Assembly (NCBI GenBank): GCA_031082125.1
Contig: JAVHLM010000001.1
Span: 62,001-126,000, forward strand
Reading direction: 5' to 3'
Source of the DNA: Candidatus Eremiobacterota bacterium
GTDB lineage: Bacteria; Vulcanimicrobiota; CADAWZ01; Ess09-12
DNA length: 64,000 bases
The notes under the pieces are model-generated. The model was not told the origin of the DNA, did no database searches, and saw only the letters and a list, made by a program, of their open reading frames with translations. This document shows, piece after piece, positions 32,275 to 46,744 of the stretch; the stretch's first letter is position 1, and each line of letters opens with the position of its first letter. The position numbers were made by a program, and so were the translations under genes.

Positions 32275-32289
32275 CTATAAGCGTCAAGA

Positions 32290-32395
32290 GAGGGCAGGGG
32301 AATTCTCCCGGCAAACAGGGATTGTCTGCGCTGAGATGCACCTATAGCGACAATCCCAATTGTTTGCTGAAGAGGAGAATGTCCCCTGCCCTCTT
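32290..32395 (-). repeat. Structured palindromic element, copy A
   Basis: A 106-nt imperfect palindrome. On the minus strand it aligns without a gap to copy B (46571-46676): about 80 of 106 bases match. Nearly all differences fall in paired positions and keep the pairing. Structure: an outer 19-bp stem with one bulged base, an asymmetric internal loop (CTTCAG side only), a 7-bp stem, a 3-base ATT bulge, a 9-bp stem, and an apical hairpin. It could be a structured RNA or a single-stranded-DNA hairpin of a mobile repeat family. Its orientation is opposite to copy B. Confidence 0.8.
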
Positions 32396-32817
32396 CGCAT
32401 ATGGCTTTGTAACTGCAAGTTTTCCTCGTCTTCATCTCCCCGGGAAAAATTCTCAAAGAATTTCCCGCCTCTCTGTCACTATTCGCTCGGCAATGTTTTA
32501 CTAAGGTGAAAAGTTTTAGAATAGCTCTGCCGTACATGTGTCAGCGGAAGGTGCTACGATGAATAAGTAATGCATGGAGGTGCATTTTATTACGGTGTCA
32601 AAGATTATAAGGAAAATCAAACTCATCTTTTCAAATATCCTAGCAAGAATCCCCGCTTTTTTCCCGTAAAATACTGTGTTCGATCTGGAAGTGTTTTGTA
32701 TGAAGGAGATCTGAAGACAGTTTTCTGATGGCTCACATGGTACCTGATTTGTTTTCACTGACATTCATGATGTCAGCAGAGCATAGTAAAATGCGGTTAT
32801 GTAATGATCGTGAAAGT
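32396..32817. other. Intergenic region, no gene recognised
   Basis: No convincing coding sequence. An 11-bp imperfect hairpin (CGGGAAA...TTTCCCG, 32441-32467) and a short AATGCA/TGCATT hairpin near 32574-32591 are visible, neither with a proper T run on the plus strand. The 82-codon minus-strand frame here has no ribosome-binding site and no recognisable domain. Base composition turns A+T-rich from here on. Confidence 0.5.
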
Positions 32818-32846
32818 TTGTCGGACATGCAAAGTGATATTATGAT
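32818..32846 (+). promoter_or_regulatory. Candidate promoter of the cas operon
   Basis: TTGTCG (32818-32823) and TATGAT (32841-32846) are separated by 17 bp. The predicted start near 32853 leaves about 47 bases of leader before cas3. Confidence 0.45.
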
Positions 32847-32899
32847 TTGATCTGAAAATCTAACGCTTTGATTATTTGAGGCCGACGGAGGAGATGACG

Positions 32900-35425
32900 G
32901 TGACTAATTTCAGTTCTTATGATGTTTTCTTTAAGGCGGCAACCGGCACAGATCCTTGGCCATATCAAAAGAGAATGGGATGTCATCAAGAATATCCCAC
33001 TGTTCTCAGTGTACCTACAGGTGCCGGGAAAACCGCTGCAGTCGTAATCTCCTGGCTTTGGCGCAGATTGTTTTCTGGTGACGAAAAGTTGAGAAAGCAG
33101 ACTCCAATGCGCTTAATTTACTGTCTTCCCATGCGGGTGCTTGTAGAACAGACATTTAATGTAATCAAGGAATGGATTGAGAAATTGGACGTCCCTTTCA
33201 ATATGAATTCGTGCAAGGGTGTTATTGTTGCCAAGCTTCTCGGCGGTGATAAGAGTGTTTATACCTTTTCAGCCGATTCATCGGGAGGTTCGAGCAAATC
33301 CGATAATGAGAATCTTTGGTCTCTTTATCCGGAATCTGATGCAATATTGGTGGGCACTCAGGACATGCTTCTTTCCCGTGCTTTGAACAGGGGATACGGA
33401 GCATCAAAATACCGCTGGCCGAAAGATTTCGCGTTACTCAATAACGACTGTTTATGGGTGATGGATGAGATACAGCTCATGGGAAGCGGCCTTTATACAA
33501 CAACCCAGCTTCAGGCATTCAGGGATTCATTTGGAGTCTATGGAGGCAGTCATTCATTATGGATGAGTGCCACGCTGAGAGAAGAATGGCTCAGAACAGT
33601 GAATTACCAGACACAAAGCATGCATCGCGAAGAGCTTCTAGATGATGATCAAAAGAACCGCTTATTGAATAGCAGGATGAAGGCATACAAAACTCTGCGC
33701 AAGGCCTCTTCAACACTAGACGATAAGAATTATATTTCAAGCCTTGCCAAGGAGGTTTTGGAACGTCATTGTAACAATATGAAACAGAAAGCCTCTGAGC
33801 GATCTCCAAGCGAATCCAGAAACACAATCGTTGTCCTGAATACCGTTCGAAGAGCAAGGGATCTTTACCGTAAAATTAAGGAACAACAAGGAAAACCTGA
33901 TTGTGCGGTGAAACCGGAGATTGTCTTGTTGCATTCTCAGTTTCGGCCAGATGACAGAGAAAAAGCTTTGAAAAAAGCTTTAGATGAAAATGTCGGCCAG
34001 TTCGGCAGAATAGTGGTATCCACACAGGTTATTGAAGCGGGAGTGGATATCTCGTGTTCGCTCATGTTCACTGAAATAGCCCCATGGGCATCAATGGTAC
34101 AGAGATACGGCAGAGTTAACCGATGGGGAAACCTTGACCATTCTGAAATATACTGGATCGGATTCAGTGATGAACCGGCTGACAAGGACCTCTTGAAAAT
34201 CGTAAGTCCTTATCAAATTGAACAGATAAGGACATCTTCTGATATCTGCAAAAAATTCGAAAATAAGCAGGTCAATCCAGGATCGCTTAACTCCTGCAAT
34301 CAGCAAATGGAGGTAGAAGAGGGCTTTGTGATAAGAAAAAAAGATATTGTAGAGCTTTTCGACACCACGGCAGACATTTCCGGGTTTGATATGGATATTT
34401 CAAGATTCATCCGTGAGGCAGAAGATTTCAACGTGCATGTGTTTTGGAGGGAAGACAGTAAGACTGTGCTTTTGAAATATCAGAATGATCCTGCGCGTAA
34501 GGAGCTTTGTAATGTGCCGGTGGCAGATATAAAGGAGATCCTGAAGAAAAAGCCCGGTACTGTGTGGAAGAAAAACTATATTGAAGGTGAGTGGCAACCG
34601 GCCGGCGCAAATGAGATTGTGCCGGGAATGGTGCTGATGATGAATTGTGCTGATGGAGGCTACCTGGAAGAAATCGGATGGAGCAAGGAGAGCAAAAGCC
34701 CTGTTGTATTGCCAGGTAATCCAATACATTTGGCATCTATGGATAATAACGCGTCCGATGACCTCTCTGAAAGCAATTCGTGGAAGACTATCCAGGATCA
34801 TACAACCGGGGTAGTGAACAAGCTGCGATATATTCTGAAAATGCTGGGCTATGATAGTAGTCTTCCCGAGGACAGGTTAATCAAATCGGCTTTGTGGCAT
34901 GATGTTGGGAAGGCTCACCCGGTGTTTCAAAAAAGCCTTCACAATAACAGCAGTCCTGCTCCATCTTCCAATGAGCTTTATGCGAAGTCGCCTTCAAAAC
35001 GGATAAGGCACGAGCGGAAGGGATTCCGCCATGAGCTGGCGTCGGCACTTCTTGCACTTCAGAACGGAGCAGGTGATCTTATTGCATATCTGGCGGCATC
35101 TCATCATGGGAAAGTGAGGCTTTCCATAAGGGCATTACCTGAAGAAGATCGGCCTGGTGATAAGCAGAAGAGATTTGCCCGCGGTGTCTGGGAAGGAGAC
35201 AGAATTCCTGAAGCTCCGCATTCAGAAATAAGAGTCGGTAATGAACTCAAGATACTACCCTCGGATATAGATTTGGTTTATATGGAATTGGGCCGCAGCG
35301 GTAAAATGGAAAGCTGGACTCAGCGCGTTCTTGGTTTACGAGAAGAATACGGGCCTTTCAGGCTGGCTTTTATGGAAAGCCTTATTCGAGCCGCTGATGA
35401 ACGCGAAAGTGGAGGGCTTATATGA
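32900..35425 (+). CDS. cas3: CRISPR-associated helicase/nuclease Cas3, type I-G
   Basis: I choose GTG 32900, which has AGGAG six bases before it; ATG 32894 directly abuts that site. The product is about 841 residues. The helicase comes first: Walker A VPTGAGKTAAV (about 39-49), the DEAD-box variant MDEIQLM (about 188), SAT, and the motif VI QRYGRVNRWG. The HD nuclease is at the C-terminus (HDVGKAHPVFQ, about 667, and ASHHGKVR about 735). This helicase-then-HD order is a known feature of type I-U/I-G Cas3. It unwinds and degrades target DNA recruited by the Cascade-like complex. Its stop overlaps csx17 by 4 bases. Confidence 0.93.
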   Translation: MTNFSSYDVFFKAATGTDPWPYQKRMGCHQEYPTVLSVPTGAGKTAAVVISWLWRRLFSGDEKLRKQTPMRLIYCLPMRVLVEQTFNVIKEWIEKLDVPFNMNSCKGVIVAKLLGGDKSVYTFSADSSGGSSKSDNENLWSLYPESDAILVGTQDMLLSRALNRGYGASKYRWPKDFALLNNDCLWVMDEIQLMGSGLYTTTQLQAFRDSFGVYGGSHSLWMSATLREEWLRTVNYQTQSMHREELLDDDQKNRLLNSRMKAYKTLRKASSTLDDKNYISSLAKEVLERHCNNMKQKASERSPSESRNTIVVLNTVRRARDLYRKIKEQQGKPDCAVKPEIVLLHSQFRPDDREKALKKALDENVGQFGRIVVSTQVIEAGVDISCSLMFTEIAPWASMVQRYGRVNRWGNLDHSEIYWIGFSDEPADKDLLKIVSPYQIEQIRTSSDICKKFENKQVNPGSLNSCNQQMEVEEGFVIRKKDIVELFDTTADISGFDMDISRFIREAEDFNVHVFWREDSKTVLLKYQNDPARKELCNVPVADIKEILKKKPGTVWKKNYIEGEWQPAGANEIVPGMVLMMNCADGGYLEEIGWSKESKSPVVLPGNPIHLASMDNNASDDLSESNSWKTIQDHTTGVVNKLRYILKMLGYDSSLPEDRLIKSALWHDVGKAHPVFQKSLHNNSSPAPSSNELYAKSPSKRIRHERKGFRHELASALLALQNGAGDLIAYLAASHHGKVRLSIRALPEEDRPGDKQKRFARGVWEGDRIPEAPHSEIRVGNELKILPSDIDLVYMELGRSGKMESWTQRVLGLREEYGPFRLAFMESLIRAADERESGGLI

Positions 35426-37503
35426 TGACCGTAGATTTGCCTGGCTGCAAATTGGAACCCTTCTCATCCTTCTTCAAGTCACTGGGAATATTCCGCATTC
35501 TCTCAGAGCAAGTCTCAGACCAAATAAGGGGATACTGGAAGGAAGGAATCTTCCGCCTTGAAATGTCCCAAAATATCAATATTATCGACTTCTTTATTGA
35601 TAAGTATAAACCGTCACCCATTCTTTCTCCCTGGAACATGGGAAGCGGATTTTATCCATATGATGCAAAGGGAGTGCCCGGAAACAGGGAATGTGTGAAG
35701 TCTCTCAATCAAATATCCAATTCGGCCGATCCGAGGGTGAGAGAATATTGTGAGACCATTGAGGACATAAGGCGTCTGCCGGGTTTTAACGAGAAGCTCA
35801 AATGCAGCGGCGATAAGGATAAAGCATATAAATCCAGATTGATACAGCAGTGCAGGAACTCGCTTGGCGAGAATTTTTTGAAATGGCTTGACACAGCAGT
35901 CATAATCGACTCTTCCGGGGAGCTCAGCTTCCCGCCGGTGATGGGCAGCGGGGGGAATGACGGCAATTCCGAGTTTTCGTCATTGTTTATGCAGATGATC
36001 CACTGGCTGATCCTTGATCCCAAGAATTGCCAGAAATCAATGAATCTGCTGGATAACTCGTTCTATGGGAAGCCATGTGAGGATTTTCAGAAATACCCTA
36101 TAGGATTTCTCTATCCCGGCAGAGCCGGTGGACCTAATCAGGGCAATAGAATCGTGACAGAAAACATACCGATAAATCCCTGGGAATATGTTCTTGCCAT
36201 TGAAGGTGTGCTCTGCTGGAATGGCTCTCTCTCAAGAAGATTTGCTTCCACAGGGAGTATATCCGCAAGGAGCCCCTTCACGGTAAGCAATGGCGCATTT
36301 GGCTTCTCTTCAGCATCAGATGACGAAAAGTCACGAGGCGAGATCTGGCTTCCAGTATGGAAAAATCCTGTCACATTAATTGAATTTATTCATTTTATTT
36401 CGGAAGGAAGGGCTGAATTAAAATCCAAGCGGGTCCGCAGTGCAATGCAGTTTGCAGAAGCGGTTTCTTCTCTCGGCACAGACAGAGGAGTCGGCTCTTT
36501 TGCGAGGTATGCACTTCTAGAAAGAAGGGGGAACGCCTATGTAACGGTTCCGGCGGGAGTCATATCAGTTAAGGAGAGAACCCATAATGATCTCGTAAGA
36601 GAATTTGACCCCGTGTTCAGGCAGTTCAGAAAAACCGAGAATACGACTCTCCTGTCCCATCTGAAGATGTTGCGTGAAAAGATATATCAGATGCTGATGC
36701 GTGGTAACGCTTCTGCGGTCATTGATGCATTCACTGTTCTCGGCCGTATAAATAAGGTCCTCTCAATACAGGATCATAAACAAAATAGTATAAATCCAAT
36801 ATATTCGCTCACAAGCAGGTGGATTGAAGCAGCTGATGATGGTTCTGTAGAGCTTCGCATTGCAGCGGCATTGGCTTCCATACAGACAGAGGAGAAGCTG
36901 GGTTCTCTCAGTGCATACCTGTATGGGGTTGATCCTATAAATGCCTATCAATGGAACAAGAGCTCAGGCAAGGTAAGCTGGAAGGGATCGAATTTTTCCA
37001 GGAGGCTCTCTTATGTACTGATGAGGAGAATGGTTGATGCTGCAAGAGAAAATGCTGAAAGAAATCCGCTGTCATCTGCCGTCTGTTTATCTGCCCGAGA
37101 TGTGATGGCTTTCATAATGAATTTATGTAGCGATTCTCTGATAGAAGACCTCCTCTTCGCCTGTTTTTCTATCAAAGATATCAGGTTTATGAAAACACCT
37201 GAAAGGTGGAAGAAGCCGGTATATCAGCTTCCTGTCTCCGGCGAATACAAACTGTTAAAGAAGCTCTTTCTGCCGTATATTCCATTCAGCATTTCTGGTA
37301 AAAAGCAGACAATTAAGCCGGAAGAGGGAATTATTCCGAAATTATTGGCCAACAGAATTAGTGATGCCTGCCGAACTGCACAAAGACGCCTTTTTTCATC
37401 GGGTCTTAATCCTCCGGACGTCATATTTCCTGATCACTGCAATGGGGGCAGGCTTGCTGCCTCAATGCTCATACCGGTGAAAACTGCTGATCTGGAGTTT
37501 TAA
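35422..37503 (+). CDS. csx17: CRISPR-associated protein Csx17 (type I-G large subunit)
   Basis: The 693-residue protein starts at ATG 35422, overlapping cas3 by 4 bases (ATGA). The opening LPGCKLEPFSSFFKSLGIFRIL and the YKPSPILSPWNMGSGFY motif (residues about 58-75) are hallmark sequences of Csx17, the Cas8-like large subunit of type I-U/I-G effector complexes. It is expected to help recognise the protospacer-adjacent motif and hold the non-target strand. Internal regions (VLAIEGVLCWNGSLSRRF; ARYALLERRGNAYV) also match the family. The length is typical. Confidence 0.92.
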   Translation: MMTVDLPGCKLEPFSSFFKSLGIFRILSEQVSDQIRGYWKEGIFRLEMSQNINIIDFFIDKYKPSPILSPWNMGSGFYPYDAKGVPGNRECVKSLNQISNSADPRVREYCETIEDIRRLPGFNEKLKCSGDKDKAYKSRLIQQCRNSLGENFLKWLDTAVIIDSSGELSFPPVMGSGGNDGNSEFSSLFMQMIHWLILDPKNCQKSMNLLDNSFYGKPCEDFQKYPIGFLYPGRAGGPNQGNRIVTENIPINPWEYVLAIEGVLCWNGSLSRRFASTGSISARSPFTVSNGAFGFSSASDDEKSRGEIWLPVWKNPVTLIEFIHFISEGRAELKSKRVRSAMQFAEAVSSLGTDRGVGSFARYALLERRGNAYVTVPAGVISVKERTHNDLVREFDPVFRQFRKTENTTLLSHLKMLREKIYQMLMRGNASAVIDAFTVLGRINKVLSIQDHKQNSINPIYSLTSRWIEAADDGSVELRIAAALASIQTEEKLGSLSAYLYGVDPINAYQWNKSSGKVSWKGSNFSRRLSYVLMRRMVDAARENAERNPLSSAVCLSARDVMAFIMNLCSDSLIEDLLFACFSIKDIRFMKTPERWKKPVYQLPVSGEYKLLKKLFLPYIPFSISGKKQTIKPEEGIIPKLLANRISDACRTAQRRLFSSGLNPPDVIFPDHCNGGRLAASMLIPVKTADLEF

Positions 37504-37555
37504 AACTGAGAAAGTCTTTCTGAAGGTTCCTTAATAAAAATTTAGGAGGTAAGAG

Positions 37556-38617
37556 ATGAATAACAATGTGACGGTTTTCTGCGACCAGATCCTTAAAAGT
37601 CCGAGACTGCTCCTTGAATGTGAGCTTGAGCCTGTGCAGGGTGAAAGATTTCAGCCGACAGGCTTCCCCGATATCGGGTCGGCGGTCTATGAGCTCCCTG
37701 ATGGAAGGCGCAAAATTCTCGTGGAATCAGCGCAGTCTATGGCAAACAGATTTGAAAAAGTCTGCGTGAAAGGTGATGGACCCGGTATAGATGATGATCT
37801 GGCTGGGATTCCATATATCAAAGTAAAGCTGAAAGGAGCACTGAAATCTGAAACCTCCTCTCTTGTGGAAGCCCATAGAATTAATTCACCTTTTATTATT
37901 AAGGCTCATAAATCAAAGGAGCCCTTTGAATCGGTGTTCAGAGCCAAAAGCGGCTATGAAGAAAAAAAGCCGATTGACTGGCAAAAAGTTGCAGGGGCTT
38001 TGCTATATTATGATCCTTCTTCTCTTGTGCATGGTGTTTTTATGGCCAATATTGGAGATGGAAGGCTGAAGGTGCCGCGGCTTTTGTCAGCATTCATTGA
38101 AGCCGAAGATGTGAGGGAAGTCTCATACGGCGGCGTTAAAAACAATGCCTATGATCCTAAGGGTGAAATAAGAGCAAAGGATTTTGATAAAGATGTATAT
38201 GGAAATGTGCCGTATCACAGAACGGAATATACCGCATCTGTAATAAAGGCATACTTTAATATTGATATCACCCAGTTACAGGGATATTTTGCCGGAAATG
38301 ACCGTGTGAAAAAATTCTTCCTGGTATTCTGCCTGCTTAAAATTCGACGCTTTCTCAACAGGGGCCTTCGATTAAGGACTTCATGTGATTTCAAGTGTAA
38401 AGGCGGCCTGAAGATTACCATGCCTGAAAAATTACCTGCTGTGCCTGACGAAGGTGAACTGCTCAATGCCCTTCAATCAATGATAAAAGAGTGTGCAGAC
38501 GAAGGGCTTTTCGCCTCTCCTGCGGTGACTGAATTGGAATGCGAATCAGTCAAGAAGGAAAGTAAGGCAAAGCCTGCGGATGATGGTGCCGTGAACGAAG
38601 AGAGAGAATCTGCATAA
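37556..38617 (+). CDS. csb1: CRISPR-associated protein Csb1 (Cas7, GSU0053 family)
   Basis: The 353-residue protein starts at ATG 37556 after TTAGGAGGTAAGAG. The ESAQSMANRFEKVC motif (about 61-74), the HRINSPFI region and the YGGVKNNAYDPKG segment (about 190) identify Csb1, the backbone Cas7-like subunit in type I-U/I-G. Several copies line up along the crRNA. The acidic tail (about 325-353) is less conserved. The 52-base gap from csx17 holds no terminator, so it is in the same transcript. Confidence 0.93.
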   Translation: MNNNVTVFCDQILKSPRLLLECELEPVQGERFQPTGFPDIGSAVYELPDGRRKILVESAQSMANRFEKVCVKGDGPGIDDDLAGIPYIKVKLKGALKSETSSLVEAHRINSPFIIKAHKSKEPFESVFRAKSGYEEKKPIDWQKVAGALLYYDPSSLVHGVFMANIGDGRLKVPRLLSAFIEAEDVREVSYGGVKNNAYDPKGEIRAKDFDKDVYGNVPYHRTEYTASVIKAYFNIDITQLQGYFAGNDRVKKFFLVFCLLKIRRFLNRGLRLRTSCDFKCKGGLKITMPEKLPAVPDEGELLNALQSMIKECADEGLFASPAVTELECESVKKESKAKPADDGAVNEERESA

Positions 38618-38672
38618 TCCTGGCAGATGCTTCAGTATCAGACTGTTATTTTTGACCAAGGAGGCATCGGCT

Positions 38673-40154
38673 GTGATTGTGATAAGCATAAAATTCATTG
38701 CCGGCAGGTATCATGCGACACCCTATGGTAAACACGTTAATGAAGGCACTCCAGAATGGCCGCCATCTCAGTATCGTTTCGTACGAGCCCTGATAGATAC
38801 ATGGAAGCGCAAATTCTGCAATTACACTGAAATGCAGATTGCTCCAATTCTGGAACATCTATCCGATACTCCGGCCTTTTATGCACTTCCGAGAGTGATG
38901 ACTTCACACCTGAGATACTTCATGAGTGCCAATACAATTGATCCCTCAGACAAAAACAAGATTCTGGATCCTTTCATCTCGTTGGGGAAAGCTGATACAA
39001 TGCATATAGGGTGGCATACAAGTGAACCATTGTCTGACGGCAGCCAGGAGTTTTTAAGCACGCTTCTTTCAGGTTTGCAGTATCTCGGCCGTTCTGAATC
39101 CTGGGTCCAATGCCAGCTGGAAAATGAATGGGAGAAGATAAAATGGAACTGTATTCCGGAAGAGCGGCATGATGACCCATCAAATCCCATTGATGATGAA
39201 CACCGTTTATTTATCTGCTGCACCAAGCCAAAAGGAGAGTACGAGAAGGAACCGTACGAGATAATCAGAGGGAAGAAGCGACAAACGGTAAGTTGGCTTG
39301 ACGCAATATGCTACGATACTTCGAATGTTCTGCAGGATTGTCTCAGTTCTCCTCCTGGAATGATTACACTGCCCTATATATGCAAAAATGAGCTTTATGG
39401 AAAAGACTATCAGGTAAAAAAATTGCCTAAACTGAAGGTAAATACCGTCCTGTATGCTCTGAATTCAAAGGTGCTTCCACGGTACACAGAGGCAATTTCC
39501 ACGTCAGAAATGGTTCGAAGGTTCCTTATGGGGATTCATAAGAAAGTTATTGGTGATCCTGCCGCAGTATCTGAAAAATTCAGTGGCAAGACGAGGAAGA
39601 GTGTTCCGCTGAAAGGCCATAAGCATTGCAAATTTATTGTATTCGATAACGATCAGGATGGGAAAACCGATCATATTGCCGTGATTGCCGGCGAAGATTA
39701 CACTGATACTGAACTTGAGGCTTTGGGGAGAAATACGAGAATTCCACAAAGGGGGAACTATGAAATAAATCTGGTTCCTATTTACTGGGGAAGCCAGGAA
39801 GGCGTTCTCAAAGCGCTACCAAAGAAGCACAAATCTTCCAGAAGATACAAAAGCGTAACCCCTTTTTTGCCTGATTACCATTACAGGAAGGGCAGAGGCG
39901 ATTTCCTGGCCTGGCACTGTGAAAAGCTTAAGAAAGAGTTCGGTTTGCATGGATATCCTGAACCACTGAAAGTGTCGCCATTGTATCCTTCAGGTAAGAA
40001 TAAATGGTATGACTTCAGGAGAGCGCGGCCGTCCAAGAATGAAATACCTCGATGGGGCTGGGGTTTTGAGGTCGAGTTTGAGAATGAACAGAAGGTCCCT
40101 TTCACCATTGGCCACAGCAGCCATTATGGAATGGGGCTCTTTCTCCCTGATTAG
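38673..40154 (+). CDS. csb2: CRISPR-associated protein Csb2 (Cas5-Cas6 fusion, GSU0054 family)
   Basis: Starting at GTG 38673 (AAGGAGG eight bases upstream) gives 493 residues. The upstream TTG 38652 lies before the ribosome-binding site, so I reject it. The N-terminal FIAGRYHATPYGKHVNEGTPEWPPSQYR region is the Csb2 signature. The N-terminal half is Cas5-like and caps the crRNA 5' end. The C-terminal half is Cas6-like and cuts pre-crRNA in the repeat; a candidate catalytic His lies near the C-terminal IGHSSHYGMGLF. It is the last cas gene, and the array follows 167 bases on. Confidence 0.92.
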   Translation: MIVISIKFIAGRYHATPYGKHVNEGTPEWPPSQYRFVRALIDTWKRKFCNYTEMQIAPILEHLSDTPAFYALPRVMTSHLRYFMSANTIDPSDKNKILDPFISLGKADTMHIGWHTSEPLSDGSQEFLSTLLSGLQYLGRSESWVQCQLENEWEKIKWNCIPEERHDDPSNPIDDEHRLFICCTKPKGEYEKEPYEIIRGKKRQTVSWLDAICYDTSNVLQDCLSSPPGMITLPYICKNELYGKDYQVKKLPKLKVNTVLYALNSKVLPRYTEAISTSEMVRRFLMGIHKKVIGDPAAVSEKFSGKTRKSVPLKGHKHCKFIVFDNDQDGKTDHIAVIAGEDYTDTELEALGRNTRIPQRGNYEINLVPIYWGSQEGVLKALPKKHKSSRRYKSVTPFLPDYHYRKGRGDFLAWHCEKLKKEFGLHGYPEPLKVSPLYPSGKNKWYDFRRARPSKNEIPRWGWGFEVEFENEQKVPFTIGHSSHYGMGLFLPD

Positions 40155-40321
40155 CGAAAGGATGGCAGAAACATCTATGGCAATGGCATCTCACAACATT
40201 CCTGATTTGGTGCCGGTCAGAATGCTGAATCAGTATTGCCCGAGACTATTTTTTCAGAAATACCTACTGTTATAGTGATATAGTTTTTTGTTCTTTGACA
40301 AATGAATATAGAGTAGGAACT
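40155..40321 (+). promoter_or_regulatory. Probable CRISPR leader
   Basis: A gene-free stretch between csb2 and the array. The last 90 bases are A+T-rich, with TTATAGTGATATAG (about 40268-40281) and TTCTTTGACAAATG (40290-40303) close to the array, as in many leaders. The position downstream of cas genes and the repeat 3' end ATTGAAGC support rightward transcription. No exact promoter spacing can be fixed. Confidence 0.5.
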
Positions 40322-41227
40322 GCTGTGGTCATTGAAAATCGGTGGCTCCATTGAAGCGTGCCCTCGAAATATACAAGCACCGTGCCTCCTGCCTATATCC
40401 ACCGATGAAAACCGGTGGCTCCATTGAAGCGAGGGGAATTGGGTCGAACCCATTGACCTCTTCTACGTATCCACCGATGAAAATCGGTGGATACATTGAA
40501 GGGTTACGGCTTTTTTCGACGACGCGTCAGATGATGCAAGTGTCTACCGATGAAGATCGTTGGCTCCATTGAAGTAATATCACTGATGATCAGAGAGTGG
40601 TGGCAGGACCTATATCCACCGATGCAAATCGGCGGCTCCATTGAAGCGACTGCGACATGGTGCTCTACCCCGGGGCACTTGAAATATCCATCGATGAAAA
40701 TCGGTGGCTCCATTGAAGCTCCCACACTTCGACGGCTCTCCATTACCCGTTCTTCATATCCACCGATGAAGATCGTTGGCCCCATTGAAGCTACAATGTC
40801 TACACCGGCGACGTGACACGCTCCTAGAATATCCACCGATGAAAATCGTTGGCTCCATTGAAGCGCAAAATCGTAAAGGCGAGGCACATAGTTGATCACA
40901 ATATCCATCGATGAAATCGGTGGCTCCATTGAAGCTCGATACCGATGCCTTCTATCTCATATATCTCTTCTTATATCCACCGATGAAGATCGTTGGCTCC
41001 ATTGAAGCGACCTTTACGGCAACCAGAAGATCGTGGGCAACATTGATATCCACCGATAAAAATCGGTGGCTCCATTGAAGCCCGGTGACATTCCCAACAA
41101 CCGGACCGTTGCAGGTTCATATCCATCGATGAAGATCGGTGGCCCCATTGAAGCACTTCAACTTTCGTCACCACCCCGGCCCGGTTGTATGCTATCCACC
41201 GATGAAAATCGGTGGCTCCATTGAAGC
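40322..41227 (+). CRISPR. CRISPR array, 13 repeats and 12 spacers, 36-bp repeat
   Basis: The repeat begins ATATCCACCGATG, continues AAAATCGGTGG and ends CTCCATTGAAGC. CCACCGAT and ATCGGTGG form an 8-bp stem with a 4-base loop. Repeat starts: 40322, 40395, 40467, 40540, 40612, 40684, 40756, 40829, 40901 (35 bp), 40973, 41046, 41119 and 41192. Spacers are 36 or 37 bp. Repeats vary: the first has a scrambled 5' half, the third has ATAC for CTCC, and the fourth has altered 5' and 3' ends. Several carry GTTGG or TCGAT substitutions in the stem. No spacer matches another part of this window by eye. Confidence 0.95.
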
Positions 41228-41352
41228 ATGACAGCGACTGGACACCCATCGCCTGTGGCAGGTTCTTGAGGTAAGCAATGGCTCCGCTCTTAGCATATTA
41301 GATGAACCATGAACTCGGATGTTTGCTTGTATTTCTGTATTAGTGCCCAAGC

Positions 41353-44300
41353 TCAATTTCTCGCATCGATGCCAATTACAGTTATATTCCTGATGCAGGA
41401 ATAAGCAACTTTCACCTTCTTGAGCAGAGCAGACCACTTGAGATCATCATGATGAATATTGAAAATCAATAATATTCCATTATCACAATGGAATCCTTCC
41501 ATGTAACTTTTCAACTTCAGAAAAGATTCTTTTTCCGTAAGTTCTGCATTTAGACCAAGATCTTTATGGTCAGATTTCTTGACTTCAATCGCCTCCTTGA
41601 TGTTGGGAGAGAAACCATATGAAACCAGGAAGTCCACTCTTTCATCATCAAGTTTCTGGGGTTCTCTCAATATGCTTCTTATCCCCAGATGCCTCAATTC
41701 GTCATTCAATTTTGTATAGATAAGTTTCTGTAATCTCGGTTCACGGAATGCCCTTCTATTGGAATCATAGAATTGTTCACGAGCTCCCTCAATTTCAATC
41801 CATGAGCGAAATTTTCCATCTATGAGTTCGATCACCTTCTCATGGAGTTCACGTGGTGTGTTGATATCAACATATTGGTGAGCCTTTAGAGTATTGTATT
41901 TCTTAATGCAGGCAGTGATTGATTTTTGTTGACCGAGATATACAAGATAGCTCCTCTTTAGTGTTTTAAATTTTTGCTTGAACCAATTAATGCCTTCTTC
42001 CTCTGCATGCCCCGCTATAAACTGCTCAAGCAATCTTATTGGTTCATAGTTGCCGAGATGTTTTAGATTATCGACATATTGAACTACAATATGCCATATG
42101 TATTGAGCATAATTCCAATAATTCATGTCTTCCCTTATGATGGTGAGTGAGAATCTCAAGAGATCCTGAAATTCATACCAGTATATCGACGATTTAATCA
42201 CCATAATTGGATATGCGAATCTCTTATTATCCAGCTCTTCCTCTTCTGGACCCACCATGTGTCCGTTCAGAGGGTAAGAAAACTTGAATTTTCTCTCCTT
42301 TATTTGATTAATACGCCACTTAGTCGCCTCCTGATCATCATGGTTTCTAATTAGAAGTTCATTCGCTATGATCTGCAGAGCCTCACATAGACTCTCAGAG
42401 TTGCTTATTTCATTCAAGTAATTTCGGTCTGGCTGGAATTCTTCACATGCCCTCAAAGCCTTTTCGCGCAGGGAATCATCAATTTTATCATCGACAACAA
42501 ATCCTCGTAGAATTGAAAGCAGACCGTTACTCCTGCTATGTTTGGCCAAATCTATCAGATTATCAGGTCTGAAGTATCTTAGATCATTCTCAGAATGGTA
42601 GATGTCCATGATGCGATGCATATCGCTATCGCGAATATTATCGATCAATTTGAGAATCGTCTCCATGCACTGATGAGCATATGGAATGAAACTAATGAGA
42701 TTTTGTCTCATCTCTGGGCTTATCAGGATTGAGAGTTCATGTGCGACCTCAATGCAGTCCTCGAAAAGAAATATGTCTCCGCTCAAACTGAACTTTCTAT
42801 TTCCTTTCTTACTATCACTCTCTAGAATTTTCAGGTGAAAATCCTTCGGATCGAATTTGGTGAGAATTTCAACCGTCAACAACTTAATTCTGTCAATATC
42901 TTCCTTCTGTAGGTATTGCTCCAATTTCTTACGATTATTGAGAAAGAATGAGAATAAATTGGTCATATATTTGCCTTCTAGGGGCGCTAACCTGAATCGG
43001 AATTCATCATAGATTCCTTCTTCTTTTGAAGTCTGTTCTTCCTTATTTTCATTCGCAGTATGCTCAGCAGTCTCAAATATGGATCTGAAATATTTACGGC
43101 CCTCCTCATAGATAGATATCCCCTCATCTCCTCGCATATCTCTGGCTGCTCTGAAGATACCATACAAGATCCAGATGGGTCCACTGTAATCCCGAAAGTA
43201 TTCAGCGAAGGCTGATACATTCTTCATCGTTATATTCTCCGCAAAGAAATCTTTGAAACTGATTATGAGTTCGTTCGAAGCACCGGCATCCACAATTTCT
43301 TTACAGATTTTGTCAAAGATGTGTTGGTCTTTTGCCTCCAGCAATTTAAGTATTTCATTTTCCAAAGAGTCCGTGGACCAGGCATTCTTCACCATAAGGA
43401 AAAGAATTTTGAACAATTTCTCTCCTATTTCGATGTTATAACATGCGTTGATGGCTTTGAAAATCCCCTCACCATCTCTAGAAGAAGATCTATTGTCTCT
43501 TGAAAAAGCTCTCAAGAATGCAGAATCTTCAATGAGGCTGTCTAGAACCCTCCTAATGGCTTCGGACTCAGTAATCGAATTCAGGCACTGAAAAGCATGG
43601 GATTGATTTTGCTTCATTCCTTTGATAAAATAAGACACACTTTCAACAGCATTTGGATCAGTGACACGACAGAATTCAAGGAAACTATCTCTGACAGCCG
43701 AATCGGGATGATCGAAGGCACTAGCAACTTGTTTTATGATTGAGTTATCCTGTAAGCCAGCCAACGCATACAGTGCTTTTCTCTGGAGGACACCGTTTTC
43801 ATTCTTGTCATTTGCGAATCGTATTAGTCTATTTCTCCAGTATTTCTTGGATTTCTCGCCAAACTTGTTCTTATGCAGGAGATAGCCAATTATGATTGTT
43901 ATATTCCCCTGCCTGATATTGTCATTGCTGAGACTTACACTCTTCTTAACTCTCTTTCTTTTCTTTATGAAAGTCTTCAGGTATTTTTCCACTGAATCAT
44001 CATAGAAATCTGCGAGTTTCTCATCAATTTCCCAATCGATCCAGACAAGCTCTTTCTGATATTGGTCAAAGACTCGCATGAAGATGCTTATTTTCTGAGC
44101 TTTCGATAATCGTGAAGTATTAGCATTTATGAGAAATCTCAAGTATTCCTTACTTTCAATGACTCTGTCATGAATTCCATAATTATTCATTCCAAATTCA
44201 ACGAGGGGTTCAAGCAGATCTATACTCTGATCAACCGCAAACATTAATGTTTCGAACCAACTTGGATGAATTTCCTCGACTATTTGTTCAACAGCCAATT

Positions 44301-45402
44301 CGAAAATTGCCCTTTGGCCGCCCAAACGAAGTAATTCACGTGAGGCCCGGTATTCCTGGAGAGACCTATCTTCGAATGAGATGGATTTTCCATTGTCCAC
44401 CAATAGGCTACGATCGAAGAGAATTCTCAATTTATCTGAGCTCAAGAAATTTGCTGCAATATTCGAGTTGAGATCATCGAGGATCGTCAACAATTCATTC
44501 TTGTCTAACTCATTCTTCTGATATATCTCCATTATAAGGGCGATCTTTTCCAGGAGATGTCTGACAAGCGCACTGTCCTGAAAGCCTTTCTTTGAATCCT
44601 CCAACGTTAACCTCTCATCAATGAAATAATCGAAGAGCTCCGATTTTGAGGGCTTATTGGGTCTGAACTTCAGGAAATAGTGCGCATATTTTTCAAGATA
44701 ACGAGGGATTCGTATTATCGCTTCATTGTCAGGTGTCCGGAAATCATTGATGATTTCATTTATGAGTTCTTCACTGAATTCTCTTTTGGCTTCTGGGCTC
44801 ATGACTAAAGAAAGATATTCACGAATCTGCTGATTATTAAATCTATCCAGATAGAAATAAGGGATGCCACTTTCTCTGAAGACTGGAAATTTTCTATAGA
44901 AGAATGATCTGCAAGCTATATAGATATTATTGTTGCTGAAACGCACCATGAAGGTACGAATCTGCTGTATAAGGTAGTTGAAAAGATTCTGATCGACTTC
45001 ATCAAGGCCATCGAGGCATAGACTCAACGGCCTTGAATTGTTCGCAAGGACGAAGACAGACCCAAGTTCGATCGAAATTTGGTTCTCGATGAAGTCTACA
45101 AGCTGATCTCTTTCAAGATAAGATTTGAGTTTAATAATGAAGGTGCCTAAGCTTTTTCTTTCATTCCACTTCTTAAATTCTTCAAATAACCTTGTCTTGC
45201 CGTAACCCGGATCAGCAAGTATTATTGCTCTCTTCTTGGATTCCAGAGCTTCAAAAATATCATGCGTCTCCTTTCTATATCGTGAGCCCAGATAATCCTG
45301 AGAAATTTTATCTCTTAAATCTTCAAATCCCTTGAAATCTGAAAAGAACGTGTAATGAGGCGGGATATAGATTTCATTGCTCATAGTAGTTCGGGTTTCC
45401 AT
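41353..45402 (-). CDS. NACHT-type STAND NTPase with C-terminal PD-(D/E)XK-like nuclease domain
   Basis: About 1349 residues from ATG 45402; ATG 45384 is an alternative, and neither has a strong ribosome-binding site. The NTPase is N-terminal: Walker A ADPGYGKTRL (about 63-72), Walker B LCLDGLDEVD (about 128-137, the NACHT-type acidic pattern) and an ACRSFF sensor. From about 350 to 1100 the chain is long helical repeats of HEAT type. The last 100 residues have a restriction-endonuclease-like motif: VDFLVSYGF, then EAIEVKKS (E-x-K) and a strand GILLIFNIHH. Bacterial NACHT proteins detect phage components and trigger an effector, usually at the N-terminus. Here the likely effector is at the C-terminus. 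The base composition is clearly A+T-richer than the flanks, so it was probably acquired. Confidence 0.82.
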   Translation of the reverse strand: METRTTMSNEIYIPPHYTFFSDFKGFEDLRDKISQDYLGSRYRKETHDIFEALESKKRAIILADPGYGKTRLFEEFKKWNERKSLGTFIIKLKSYLERDQLVDFIENQISIELGSVFVLANNSRPLSLCLDGLDEVDQNLFNYLIQQIRTFMVRFSNNNIYIACRSFFYRKFPVFRESGIPYFYLDRFNNQQIREYLSLVMSPEAKREFSEELINEIINDFRTPDNEAIIRIPRYLEKYAHYFLKFRPNKPSKSELFDYFIDERLTLEDSKKGFQDSALVRHLLEKIALIMEIYQKNELDKNELLTILDDLNSNIAANFLSSDKLRILFDRSLLVDNGKSISFEDRSLQEYRASRELLRLGGQRAIFELAVEQIVEEIHPSWFETLMFAVDQSIDLLEPLVEFGMNNYGIHDRVIESKEYLRFLINANTSRLSKAQKISIFMRVFDQYQKELVWIDWEIDEKLADFYDDSVEKYLKTFIKKRKRVKKSVSLSNDNIRQGNITIIIGYLLHKNKFGEKSKKYWRNRLIRFANDKNENGVLQRKALYALAGLQDNSIIKQVASAFDHPDSAVRDSFLEFCRVTDPNAVESVSYFIKGMKQNQSHAFQCLNSITESEAIRRVLDSLIEDSAFLRAFSRDNRSSSRDGEGIFKAINACYNIEIGEKLFKILFLMVKNAWSTDSLENEILKLLEAKDQHIFDKICKEIVDAGASNELIISFKDFFAENITMKNVSAFAEYFRDYSGPIWILYGIFRAARDMRGDEGISIYEEGRKYFRSIFETAEHTANENKEEQTSKEEGIYDEFRFRLAPLEGKYMTNLFSFFLNNRKKLEQYLQKEDIDRIKLLTVEILTKFDPKDFHLKILESDSKKGNRKFSLSGDIFLFEDCIEVAHELSILISPEMRQNLISFIPYAHQCMETILKLIDNIRDSDMHRIMDIYHSENDLRYFRPDNLIDLAKHSRSNGLLSILRGFVVDDKIDDSLREKALRACEEFQPDRNYLNEISNSESLCEALQIIANELLIRNHDDQEATKWRINQIKERKFKFSYPLNGHMVGPEEEELDNKRFAYPIMVIKSSIYWYEFQDLLRFSLTIIREDMNYWNYAQYIWHIVVQYVDNLKHLGNYEPIRLLEQFIAGHAEEEGINWFKQKFKTLKRSYLVYLGQQKSITACIKKYNTLKAHQYVDINTPRELHEKVIELIDGKFRSWIEIEGAREQFYDSNRRAFREPRLQKLIYTKLNDELRHLGIRSILREPQKLDDERVDFLVSYGFSPNIKEAIEVKKSDHKDLGLNAELTEKESFLKLKSYMEGFHCDNGILLIFNIHHDDLKWSALLKKVKVAYSCIRNITVIGIDARN

Positions 45403-45419
45403 CAATAAAATTTGAACGG

Positions 45420-45435
45420 ATCCGTTTTTACGGAT
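45420..45435. promoter_or_regulatory. Perfect inverted repeat upstream of the NACHT gene
   Basis: ATCCGT and ACGGAT flank a 4-base T loop, 17 bases upstream of the NACHT start. It could be an operator or a leader hairpin that limits expression. Confidence 0.4.
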
Positions 45436-45823
45436 AAATCGATTCCCTTAGCTGTACTGAAATACACAGTATTCGTTCATTATCAAATAAAATGTTGAAC
45501 CTCGCCAATTACGCTAATATCATATATCAGGCTTATATTTGGGATTAATTTCTTCACAGATCTCGTCGCCACCTCCAGATTGAGGAAAGGAGTTTTGAGT
45601 CCGGCCTCCGTCGGAATCCGCAGAAATTATACAATAAATTTCCGAAAAGTCCAAATATTTCTTAAAGAAGAGCGGTTAAAGGGGCCAAAGAGAGAAAAAT
45701 TCCGGAAAGCGGTGAGTCCGAGTGGGGAAAAAGACAGGACAGCGGGTAGAAAACCCTGATTCTGTATGCGCAGAACCAGAGCCCTTCCTGACCCACCCCT
45801 TATATCTCTAATTACGCCCGGGA
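45436..45823. other. Intergenic region, nothing recognised
   Basis: No coding sequence with a plausible start site and no terminator. The minus-strand frame of 69 codons at 45627-45836 has no ribosome-binding site and runs into the repeat element. It probably contains the promoter of the NACHT gene, but no clear -35/-10 pair is visible. Confidence 0.45.
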
Positions 45824-45928
45824 TGTCACTAGTCACCTGAAATGATCCACTGAGTAATCACCCTAATGATCCACTGAATAATCCCTCTTAGCCGATCATG
45901 GGTGGATCGATTAAGGCGATCAGTGACA
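45824..45928. mobile_element. 105-bp inverted-repeat element, likely insertion-sequence remnant
   Basis: The ends are inverted repeats: TGTCACTAGTCACCTGAA on the left, and TGTCACTGATCGCCTTAA when the right end is read inward. About 21 of 27 bases match, including GATCCAC. Inside, AATGATCCACTGA(G/A)TAATC occurs twice in tandem. Ends starting with TG and carrying internal multiple repeats recall IS21-family termini, so this may be two IS ends left after loss of the transposase genes, or a small non-autonomous element. No target duplication was identified. Confidence 0.55.
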
Positions 45929-45953
45929 CTTGACCTTCGTCGCGAGGAACTTG

Positions 45954-45985
45954 GTCGCCCCTCGCGCAGGGGCGTGGATTGAAAC
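45954..45985 (+). CRISPR. Orphan 32-bp CRISPR repeat (type I-C-like), copy 1
   Basis: The sequence begins GTCGCCCCTCGCGCAGGGGC and ends GTGGATTGAAAC, the form of type I-C repeats: a GCCCCTCGCGCAGGGGC stem and a GAAAC 3' end. There is no neighbouring repeat at the usual 34-36 bp distance on either side; the only other copy is at 46528. No I-C cas genes are in the window. Confidence 0.75.
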
Positions 45986-45999
45986 AGAGGAGGGAATGG

Positions 46000-46182
46000 T
46001 CACAGGCTCTCTATGGCTTTTTCAATAATGGCCGTCACTGTCACACCTTGCTTATCTGCTTTGTCCTTCAGCTTGTCGAGCATCTTCTGAGAGAGCCTGA
46101 GCGTAAAAGGCTTCTTGCTTTCCCGCTCTCCCCTCTCAGACCTGCATACCGGGCATCGGCATCCTTGCTTGTGGCCATTCAT
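46000..46182 (-). CDS. Small ribbon-helix-helix-like protein with Cys cluster
   Basis: The 60-residue protein starts at ATG 46182, overlapping the DUF2442 stop by one base (TAATG) with GGAAGGGGG upstream. The N-terminal part has four clustered metal-type residues (HKQGCRCPVCRSE). Residues 25-58 follow a ribbon-helix-helix pattern (KPFTLRLSQKMLDKLKDKADKQGVTVTAIIEKAIESL), used by antitoxins to bind DNA. It is co-transcribed with the DUF2442 gene. The pair looks like a toxin-antitoxin-type module, but which member would be the toxin is not clear. Confidence 0.65.
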   Translation of the reverse strand: MNGHKQGCRCPVCRSERGERESKKPFTLRLSQKMLDKLKDKADKQGVTVTAIIEKAIESL

Positions 46183-46451
46183 TATGCCGCCCCCTTCCAG
46201 GCTTCAACTACTCTTTTCAGGGGGACCGCTGCCTCATAGAGAGAATCGGGACAGAAGTCTATATCATACTTGGGCCACCTCAGGGCACCGTGATCTATTT
46301 CCACCTGCCCGAAAATCTCTATGTCTTTCAGCGGCTGCATAACCTCCCCCCATAATTCGGGCTCGAAGTCAAAGACTTTAACGGCGCCATCATCGAACGT
46401 GAGCAGAAGTATATACCCGGAAATATGTCTCACATCAGTAACGATATGCAT
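46182..46451 (-). CDS. DUF2442-family protein
   Basis: From ATG 46451 (AGG six bases upstream) the protein has 89 residues. It follows the DUF2442 pattern: short strands (IVTDVRHISGYILLLTFDDGAVKVFDF), then EIDHGALRWPKYDIDFCPDSLYEAA, including the family's hallmark W-P-x-x-x-D-x-x-P/C-x-x-L. DUF2442 proteins are commonly paired with small partners such as DUF4160 in putative toxin-antitoxin loci. Here the partner is a ribbon-helix-helix protein. An extended -10 promoter lies directly upstream. Confidence 0.75.
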   Translation of the reverse strand: MHIVTDVRHISGYILLLTFDDGAVKVFDFEPELWGEVMQPLKDIEIFGQVEIDHGALRWPKYDIDFCPDSLYEAAVPLKRVVEAWKGAA

Positions 46452-46466
46452 ATGCATCCTGTAATC

Positions 46467-46496
46467 ATTATAGCATATATACATACATCCGTCACT
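46467..46496 (-). promoter_or_regulatory. Promoter of the DUF2442/RHH pair
   Basis: On the minus strand TGCTATAAT (-10 hexamer 46467-46472) forms an extended -10. A weak GTGACG/TGACGG -35 lies about 17-18 bp upstream. The predicted leader is about ten bases. Confidence 0.5.
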
Positions 46497-46527
46497 ACAT
46501 TGCAGGGCACAAGGTTAAAAATACCGG

Positions 46528-46559
46528 GTCGCCCCTCGCGCAGGGGCGTGGATTGTTAC
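46528..46559 (+). CRISPR. Orphan 32-bp CRISPR repeat (type I-C-like), copy 2
   Basis: Identical to copy 1 over the first 28 bases, but the last four read TTAC instead of AAAC, as in a degenerate terminal repeat. The 542 bases between the copies hold the DUF2442/RHH pair, far longer than a spacer. It ends 11 bases before structured element B. Confidence 0.75.
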
Positions 46560-46570
46560 TTTTAATCACC

Positions 46571-46676
46571 AAGAGGCCAGGGGCCATTCTCCTCTTCAGC
46601 CAATGATTGAGTTTGTCACTATCTTGTCCAAGTAACACAGACAAACTCTATTGGCCGGGAGAATGCCCCTGGCCTC
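46571..46676 (+). repeat. Structured palindromic element, copy B
   Basis: A 106-nt palindrome that matches the reverse complement of copy A (32290-32395) base for base in length. Outer stem: GAGGCCAGGGGCCATTCTCC with GGGAGAATGCCCCTGGCCTC, one bulged C. The inner stems are GCCAATG/TATTGGC and GAGTTTGTC/GACAAACTC with a bulged ATT. The apical hairpin is CTTG-TC-CAAG. At least nine pairs differ from copy A by changes on both sides. It lies about 130 bases before the sigma factor gene. Confidence 0.8.
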
Positions 46677-46744
46677 ACGATTCTGGTGCAGAAAGTCAAG
46701 ATCACCCGGTGTCACCGCTGTGCAGGAAATTTTTTCTGCTGTTC

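What the first reader, a model, noticed from the sequence alone, without database searches (positions are those of the whole stretch)
46571..46676. 106-nt element whose two copies differ almost only by compensatory base-pair changes
Reverse complement of 32290-32395 aligns to 46571-46676 with no gap over 106 positions. About 26 positions differ. By my count 21 of these lie in paired positions and all keep pairing. Double changes (element numbering, B minus 46570): 7/102, 14/95, 31/83, 34/80, 40/77, 42/75, 53/62, 54/61 and 55/60, plus an A-T to G-T wobble at 35/79. A single bulged base (15), a TCTTCA asymmetric loop and an ATT bulge (36-38) are unchanged. Such a pattern needs selection for the folded form, either as RNA or as single-stranded DNA. 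I do not recognise it as a known class. Only two copies were compared, so the statistics must come from more members.
Basis: seen in the sequence. Interest (0 to 1): 0.9.

Follow-up and report, generated by a model that had tools for sequence, protein, structure and literature searches.

The report
Dispersed hairpin repeat near acquired genes
The 106-nt hairpin is real and is one of about 42 scattered copies in this genome whose folded shape is preserved while its letters change; it most resembles the small palindromic mobile repeats called REPINs, but the enzyme that normally moves those is absent, and many copies sit beside one nuclease gene family or at the edges of acquired DNA.

Summary
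A covariance model finds about 42 copies in this genome and none in 148 other genomes of the phylum. Over 36 copies 97.6% of stem cells pair, with 109 double-sided changes against 33 in shuffles. Rfam has no such family.

Anatomy: conserved outer arms, each folding weakly on its own; freely changing but paired inner stems; a short conserved tail on the 3' side only, read G[TC]A[GT] (often GTAG) on the other strand. That is the plan of a REPIN, for which compensatory changes are already published (PMC3116915). No RAYT transposase was found. Eleven copies directly follow, always in sense, members of an HNH-nuclease family of at least 80 loci; the HNH tree needs six changes, so this is not one co-duplication. 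Elsewhere the 5' flank is AT-richer than the tail flank. Both window copies bound a low-GC CRISPR I-G island.

Best reading: a REPIN-like non-autonomous element, mobiliser unknown. New variant of a known kind.

The parts
46571..46676 (+). Hairpin element, copy A
   Evidence: CM hit 130.8 bits; MFE -57.4 kcal/mol, z -9.1
46573..46593 (+). Conserved 5' outer arm GAGGCCAGGGGCCATTCTCCT, which also folds weakly on its own
   Evidence: alignments A2 and A3; single-arm folds
46593..46598 (+). Conserved TCTTCA internal loop of the 5' arm (its first base can pair in the predicted fold of single copies)
   Evidence: replaced by a short loop in L021, L024, L025, L050, L104 and L105
46599..46617 (+). 5' side of the two inner stems (29-35 and 39-47) with the ATT bulge (36-38); most compensatory changes lie here
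   Evidence: pair counts for helices 3 and 4
46618..46639 (+). Variable apical loop
46640..46655 (+). 3' side of the two inner stems
46656..46676 (+). Conserved 3' outer arm CGGGAGAATGCCCCTGGCCTC
46677..46688 (+). Tail on the 3' side (family consensus nCKnTRCAc, with a weaker C at +12)
   Evidence: column information above the 99.9% shuffle level at +1 to +3, +5 to +9 and +12
32290..32395 (-). Hairpin element, copy B
   Evidence: CM hit 131.6 bits; reverse complement aligned to copy A
32278..32289 (-). Tail of copy B
32396..46570 (.). Low-GC island (mostly 0.39-0.47; about 0.55 outside) between the two outward-facing elements: type I-G CRISPR-Cas, array, 1350-aa ORF, two I-C-type repeats
   Evidence: GC; PADLOC; NCBIfam
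46527..46555 (+). Solitary I-C-type CRISPR repeat 15 nt upstream of copy A; 3 of only 4 places in the genome lie just 5' of a hairpin

Best explanation
A lineage-specific family of short non-autonomous mobile repeats built like REPINs: two inverted, conserved, REP-like arms joined by a spacer whose sequence drifts but must keep pairing, plus a one-sided tag. The most likely mode of action is that one strand (the + strand of the element, or its tagged complement) is exposed as single-stranded DNA, folds into the long hairpin, and is recognised through the conserved arms, bulges and tag by a nuclease or transposase that cuts and reinserts it, usually in intergenic DNA just past stop codons. Shown: the family, its dispersal, the conserved fold, the polarity, the missing RAYT. 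Inferred: mobility, single-stranded DNA as substrate, and an enzyme that is lost, unassembled or of another type. The HNH family whose genes repeatedly carry the element just past the stop codon is a candidate partner, unproven.
For: About 42 copies in unrelated intergenic settings; conserved arms with covarying inner stems; each arm alone folds REP-like, weakly (mean z -1.2 and -1.6); one-sided tag, GTAG or GTAT in 12 of 36 and G[TC]A[GT] in 20 of 36 on the reverse strand; no target-site duplication found, as expected of REP and IS200-type elements; shortened and single-arm versions exist, and one short version shares flanks with a full copy (C12:97360 and C12:96203); the published REPIN plan includes compensatory changes and an excised hairpin with a 5' tail (PMC3116915); G-U over A-C bias points to one folding strand.
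Against: No RAYT/Y1 transposase in the assembly (97.6% complete). The tag is loose and on one side only, while REPINs carry it at both ends. No empty site or excision was seen; no relative closer than the same order is held, so mobility is not shown directly. Copies differ by 5-25%, so spread may be old.
Confidence: 0.6

Rival explanations
1. A structured RNA element of mRNA 3' ends (stabiliser or ribonuclease III-type processing site), kept by selection on transcripts.
For: Very stable fold; many copies just past stop codons; always sense after HNH genes; G-U tolerated more than A-C on the + strand.
Against: Apart from HNH genes the nearest gene on the 5' side is sense and antisense about equally often (14 and 14, my count), so the + strand is not consistently transcribed; no conserved promoter upstream; no T run; absent from relatives.
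Confidence: 0.2
2. A terminal or cassette recombination site: the hairpin is the 3' boundary of acquired gene units, working like an integron attC.
For: 5' flank is AT-richer than the tail flank (1 kb, 24 copies, mean -0.049, Wilcoxon p=0.0017; weaker at 3 and 6 kb). The 5' side holds HNH genes or acquired genes: CRISPR I-G, PLD/ResIII helicases, TcmP-DUF5131. Two helicase islands (C22, C19) are bounded by outward-facing hairpins 96-97% identical within a pair.
Against: No integron integrase over cut-off; no attC core sequences seen in the alignment; most hairpins stand singly; the window pair is only 75% identical by position; no cassette boundary or empty site found.
Confidence: 0.1
3. Arm-to-arm template switching keeps the arms complementary without selection on a folded molecule.
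For: Half of the double changes (15 of 31) are transversion-type, with few mismatch intermediates.
Against: The bulges and the TCTTCA loop are mostly unchanged, whereas templated repair should remove them; wobble pairs are strand-biased; outer arms are conserved in sequence.
Confidence: 0.1

Closest known systems
REPINs (REP doublets forming hairpins; Bertels and Rainey 2011, PMC3116915)
   Same: Long hairpin from two inverted conserved arms, less conserved spacer that keeps pairing with compensatory changes, intergenic, solitary and shortened forms, hairpin with a single-stranded tail
   Different: No RAYT in the assembly; tag loose and on one side only; about 42 copies, with an HNH gene in the place where a RAYT would stand beside some copies
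GTAG- and CGTC-tagged REP families (PMC3733652)
   Same: Tagged palindromes downstream of genes; CGTC families also lack a dedicated transposase
   Different: Those units are 20-40 bp; here the unit is 106 nt plus a tail and the tag is degenerate
ERIC/NEMIS-type intergenic palindromes and bacterial MITEs (from general knowledge; reviewed in PMC2229807 and PMC10969869, not read in full here)
   Same: About 100-130 bp imperfect palindromes, non-autonomous, many copies
   Different: No target-site duplication and no autonomous element with matching ends found; no sequence relation tested
Integron attC sites (PMC2727003, abstract only)
   Same: Imperfect hairpin with conserved unpaired bases, structure kept while stem sequence varies, at 3' ends of acquired genes
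   Different: No integrase over cut-off and no attC core boxes seen; no cassette array

Membership tests
REPIN / RAYT system | Two inverted conserved arms joined by a pairing spacer | tested here: met
REPIN / RAYT system | Each arm is itself an imperfect palindrome | tested here: inconclusive
   Both arms fold alone, mean z -1.2 and -1.6: weak
REPIN / RAYT system | GTAG-type tetranucleotide at both outer ends | tested here: not met
   One end only; GTAG in 6 of 36, G[TC]A[GT] in 20 of 36
REPIN / RAYT system | Cognate RAYT (Y1_Tnp) in the genome, flanked by the repeats | tested here: not met
   PF01797 and NF047646 absent; assembly 97.6% complete
REPIN / RAYT system | Mobility (excision, or presence/absence between strains) | not testable with these tools
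   No close relative held; none in 148 genomes of the phylum
Integron attC | RYYYAAC / GTTRRRY core boxes at the palindrome ends | tested here: not met
   Ends read GAGGCCAGGGG / CCCCTGGCCTC in the alignment; read by eye
Integron attC | Integron integrase in the genome | tested here: not met
   TIGR02249: best 73.7 bits against cut-off 265
DDE-type MITE | Target-site duplication | tested here: not met
   No excess of matching flanks for words of 2-6 nt; the script stopped before 8-nt words
Intrinsic terminator | T run after the stem | tested here: not met
   Tail consensus nCKnTRCA
Known Rfam family | Match over the gathering score | tested here: not met
   only weak generic hairpin matches far below cut-off

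The most novel reading that the evidence does not exclude
A REPtron-like system in which a multi-copy HNH endonuclease family (at least 80 loci, HNH domain nearest that of IscB) takes the place of the RAYT: the HNH protein processes the folded strand, the hairpin lies at the 3' end of the nuclease gene, and the same hairpins, acting in trans, end up at the borders of acquired islands, including defence loci.
Probability: 0.15. Interest if true: 0.8.

Novelty: new variant of a known kind. Interest (0 to 1): 0.5.

Why it matters
REPINs are among the commonest bacterial repeats, and their movement is ascribed to one enzyme family. A strongly structure-constrained family of the same plan in a genome without that enzyme, repeatedly placed behind HNH nuclease genes, gives a defined sequence, about 40 natural variants and a candidate enzyme with which to ask whether other nucleases can mobilise hairpins. 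It also gives a marker for the edges of acquired islands in this lineage.

Tried and rejected
Rfam family, also with a permissive threshold. RAYT-driven REPIN in the strict sense. Integron. IS110 as the driver: a single decayed copy near one hairpin, ending several hundred bases before it. Target-site duplication. HNH and hairpin as one co-duplicated unit: rejected as the sole explanation, since the HNH tree needs 6 changes and the hairpins of the closest HNH pair are not each other's nearest. Same arrangement at HNH genes of other genomes of the phylum: stretches fetched and read by eye, no shared hairpin recognised. Replication-strand bias: skew near zero, not usable. AlphaFold model of the HNH protein: mean pLDDT 56, not used.

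Full report
Observation. The copies at 46571-46676 (+) and 32290-32395 (-) align over 106 positions without a gap and differ at 26. The predicted folds share 36 pairs with six double changes and one wobble; the three apical pairs are possible but not common to both folds. Both fold about nine standard deviations better than shuffles.

Family. BLAST of one copy against its own genome (7.43 Mb, 69 contigs) gave about 30 full or near-full copies. A covariance model from 28 of them (A2, R1) raised this to about 42 and found none in the 148 other genomes of the phylum that are held, the nearest being only of the same order. Pattern and BLAST searches in GTDB contigs, IMG/VR, phages and plasmids found nothing.

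Covariation. On the MAFFT alignment of 28 copies 97.4% of stem cells pair; 14 pairs and 78 cells carry double changes against 7 and 23 in shuffles. On 36 copies, 8 of them not used in the model, the figures are 97.6%, 16 pairs and 109 cells against 9 and 33 (this alignment was fitted to the model and leans towards it). Between nearest copies unpaired positions differ at 13% (132 of 1008), while stem pairs show 31 kept double changes, 21 G-U changes, 16 broken single and 2 broken double changes. Single changes leave G-U on the + strand 21 times and A-C 3 times; without the two richest pairs it is 11 to 3, p=0.057. Constraint on one folding strand is therefore likely, not certain. Half of the double changes are transversion-type, so arm-to-arm copying may contribute.

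Anatomy. Outer arms are nearly fixed in sequence, inner stems drift but pair, and the TCTTCA loop and ATT bulge are mostly kept. Conservation continues past the stem on the 3' side only (nCKnTRCAc, weaker at +12); the 5' side ends with the stem. The complement of the tail reads G[TC]A[GT] in 20 of 36 copies, GTAG in 6. Each arm also folds alone, weakly. No target-site duplication was found. This is the REPIN plan, including compensatory changes and a hairpin with a 5' tail (PMC3116915); GTAG and CGTC tags of REPs are described in PMC3733652.

Setting. Copies are intergenic, often within a few tens of bases of a stop codon. Eleven follow the end of an HNH-nuclease gene or its remnant within about 110 nt, all in sense; the family has at least 80 loci by my count. 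Among 28 well-preserved genes of one HNH subfamily, 11 have the arm's start motif in sense within 60 nt of the stop: seven with full hairpins and four that look like remnants, where about 2 are expected in the whole scanned stretch. A tree of these proteins needs six changes of the hairpin label, with no significant clustering (86 of 500 shuffles as low), so the association arose, or was lost, repeatedly. The HNH domain matches that of IscB, but no RuvC part was detected.

Polarity. For copies not next to HNH genes the 5' flank is AT-richer than the tail flank: 1 kb, 24 copies without duplicates, 19 lower and 5 higher, Wilcoxon p=0.0017; 3 kb p=0.016 and 6 kb p=0.029, where the sign test is not significant. 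In the window the two copies face outward around a 14-kb low-GC island holding type I-G CRISPR-Cas genes and a 1350-aa protein with a weak match to the antiphage protein EruA. Two other islands with PLD/ResIII helicase genes (C22, C19) are bounded by outward-facing hairpins that are 96-97% identical within a pair. This is suggestive of a border role; the analysis was made after seeing the data, and no insertion boundary was proved.

Mechanism. The usual REPIN enzyme is missing: PF01797 and NF047646 find nothing. An integron integrase over cut-off is missing. The best reading is a REPIN-like non-autonomous element whose mobiliser is lost, unassembled or of another type. The HNH family is the only repeated partner seen. 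An RNA role at mRNA ends is the main rival; equal numbers of sense and antisense placements outside HNH genes speak against it as the sole function.

Limits.

Noticed in passing
window 45953-45981 and 46527-46555; L100, L101: An I-C-type CRISPR repeat occurs at only four places in the genome, singly, and three of them lie just 5' of a hairpin copy. The two window copies flank a small gene pair that looked DUF2442-like by eye.
   Followed up: partly
window 40316-41229: CRISPR array of a type I-G locus with unusually divergent repeats (64-89% identity to a reference copy); no cas1/cas2 was noticed among the neighbouring ORFs, but none was searched for.
   Followed up: no
window 41353-45405 (-): 1350-aa ORF, GC 0.39, no Pfam or PADLOC hit, weak match to NACHT antiphage protein EruA.
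   Followed up: partly
G000 genome-wide, e.g. L031-L070: At least 80 loci of about 800-aa HNH proteins in two subfamilies, with a conserved upstream promoter region; other genomes of the phylum also hold relatives.
   Followed up: partly
L108 3001-3190 (C44:41883-42072): One hairpin copy is interrupted by a second, unrelated palindrome of about 53 nt that has roughly 15-20 copies of its own in the genome.
   Followed up: partly
C12:96203 and C12:97360 (L022, L111): A full hairpin and a 28-nt shortened version share flanking sequence, a natural before/after pair for a deletion between short GGCC repeats.
   Followed up: partly
L031-L056, about 240-330 nt before the conserved HNH start: The start of the conserved region upstream of HNH genes resembles the hairpin's extended tail (TRCACCRCAGGGC); not tested statistically.
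   Followed up: no
C39, C44 (L100, L115): Rpn-type (PDDEXK_2) nuclease gene on the tail side of the C44 copy (Pfam hit); two short ORFs ending 23 nt before the C39 copies look like Rpn tails by eye only (one has just a weak HTH_7 match).
   Followed up: partly
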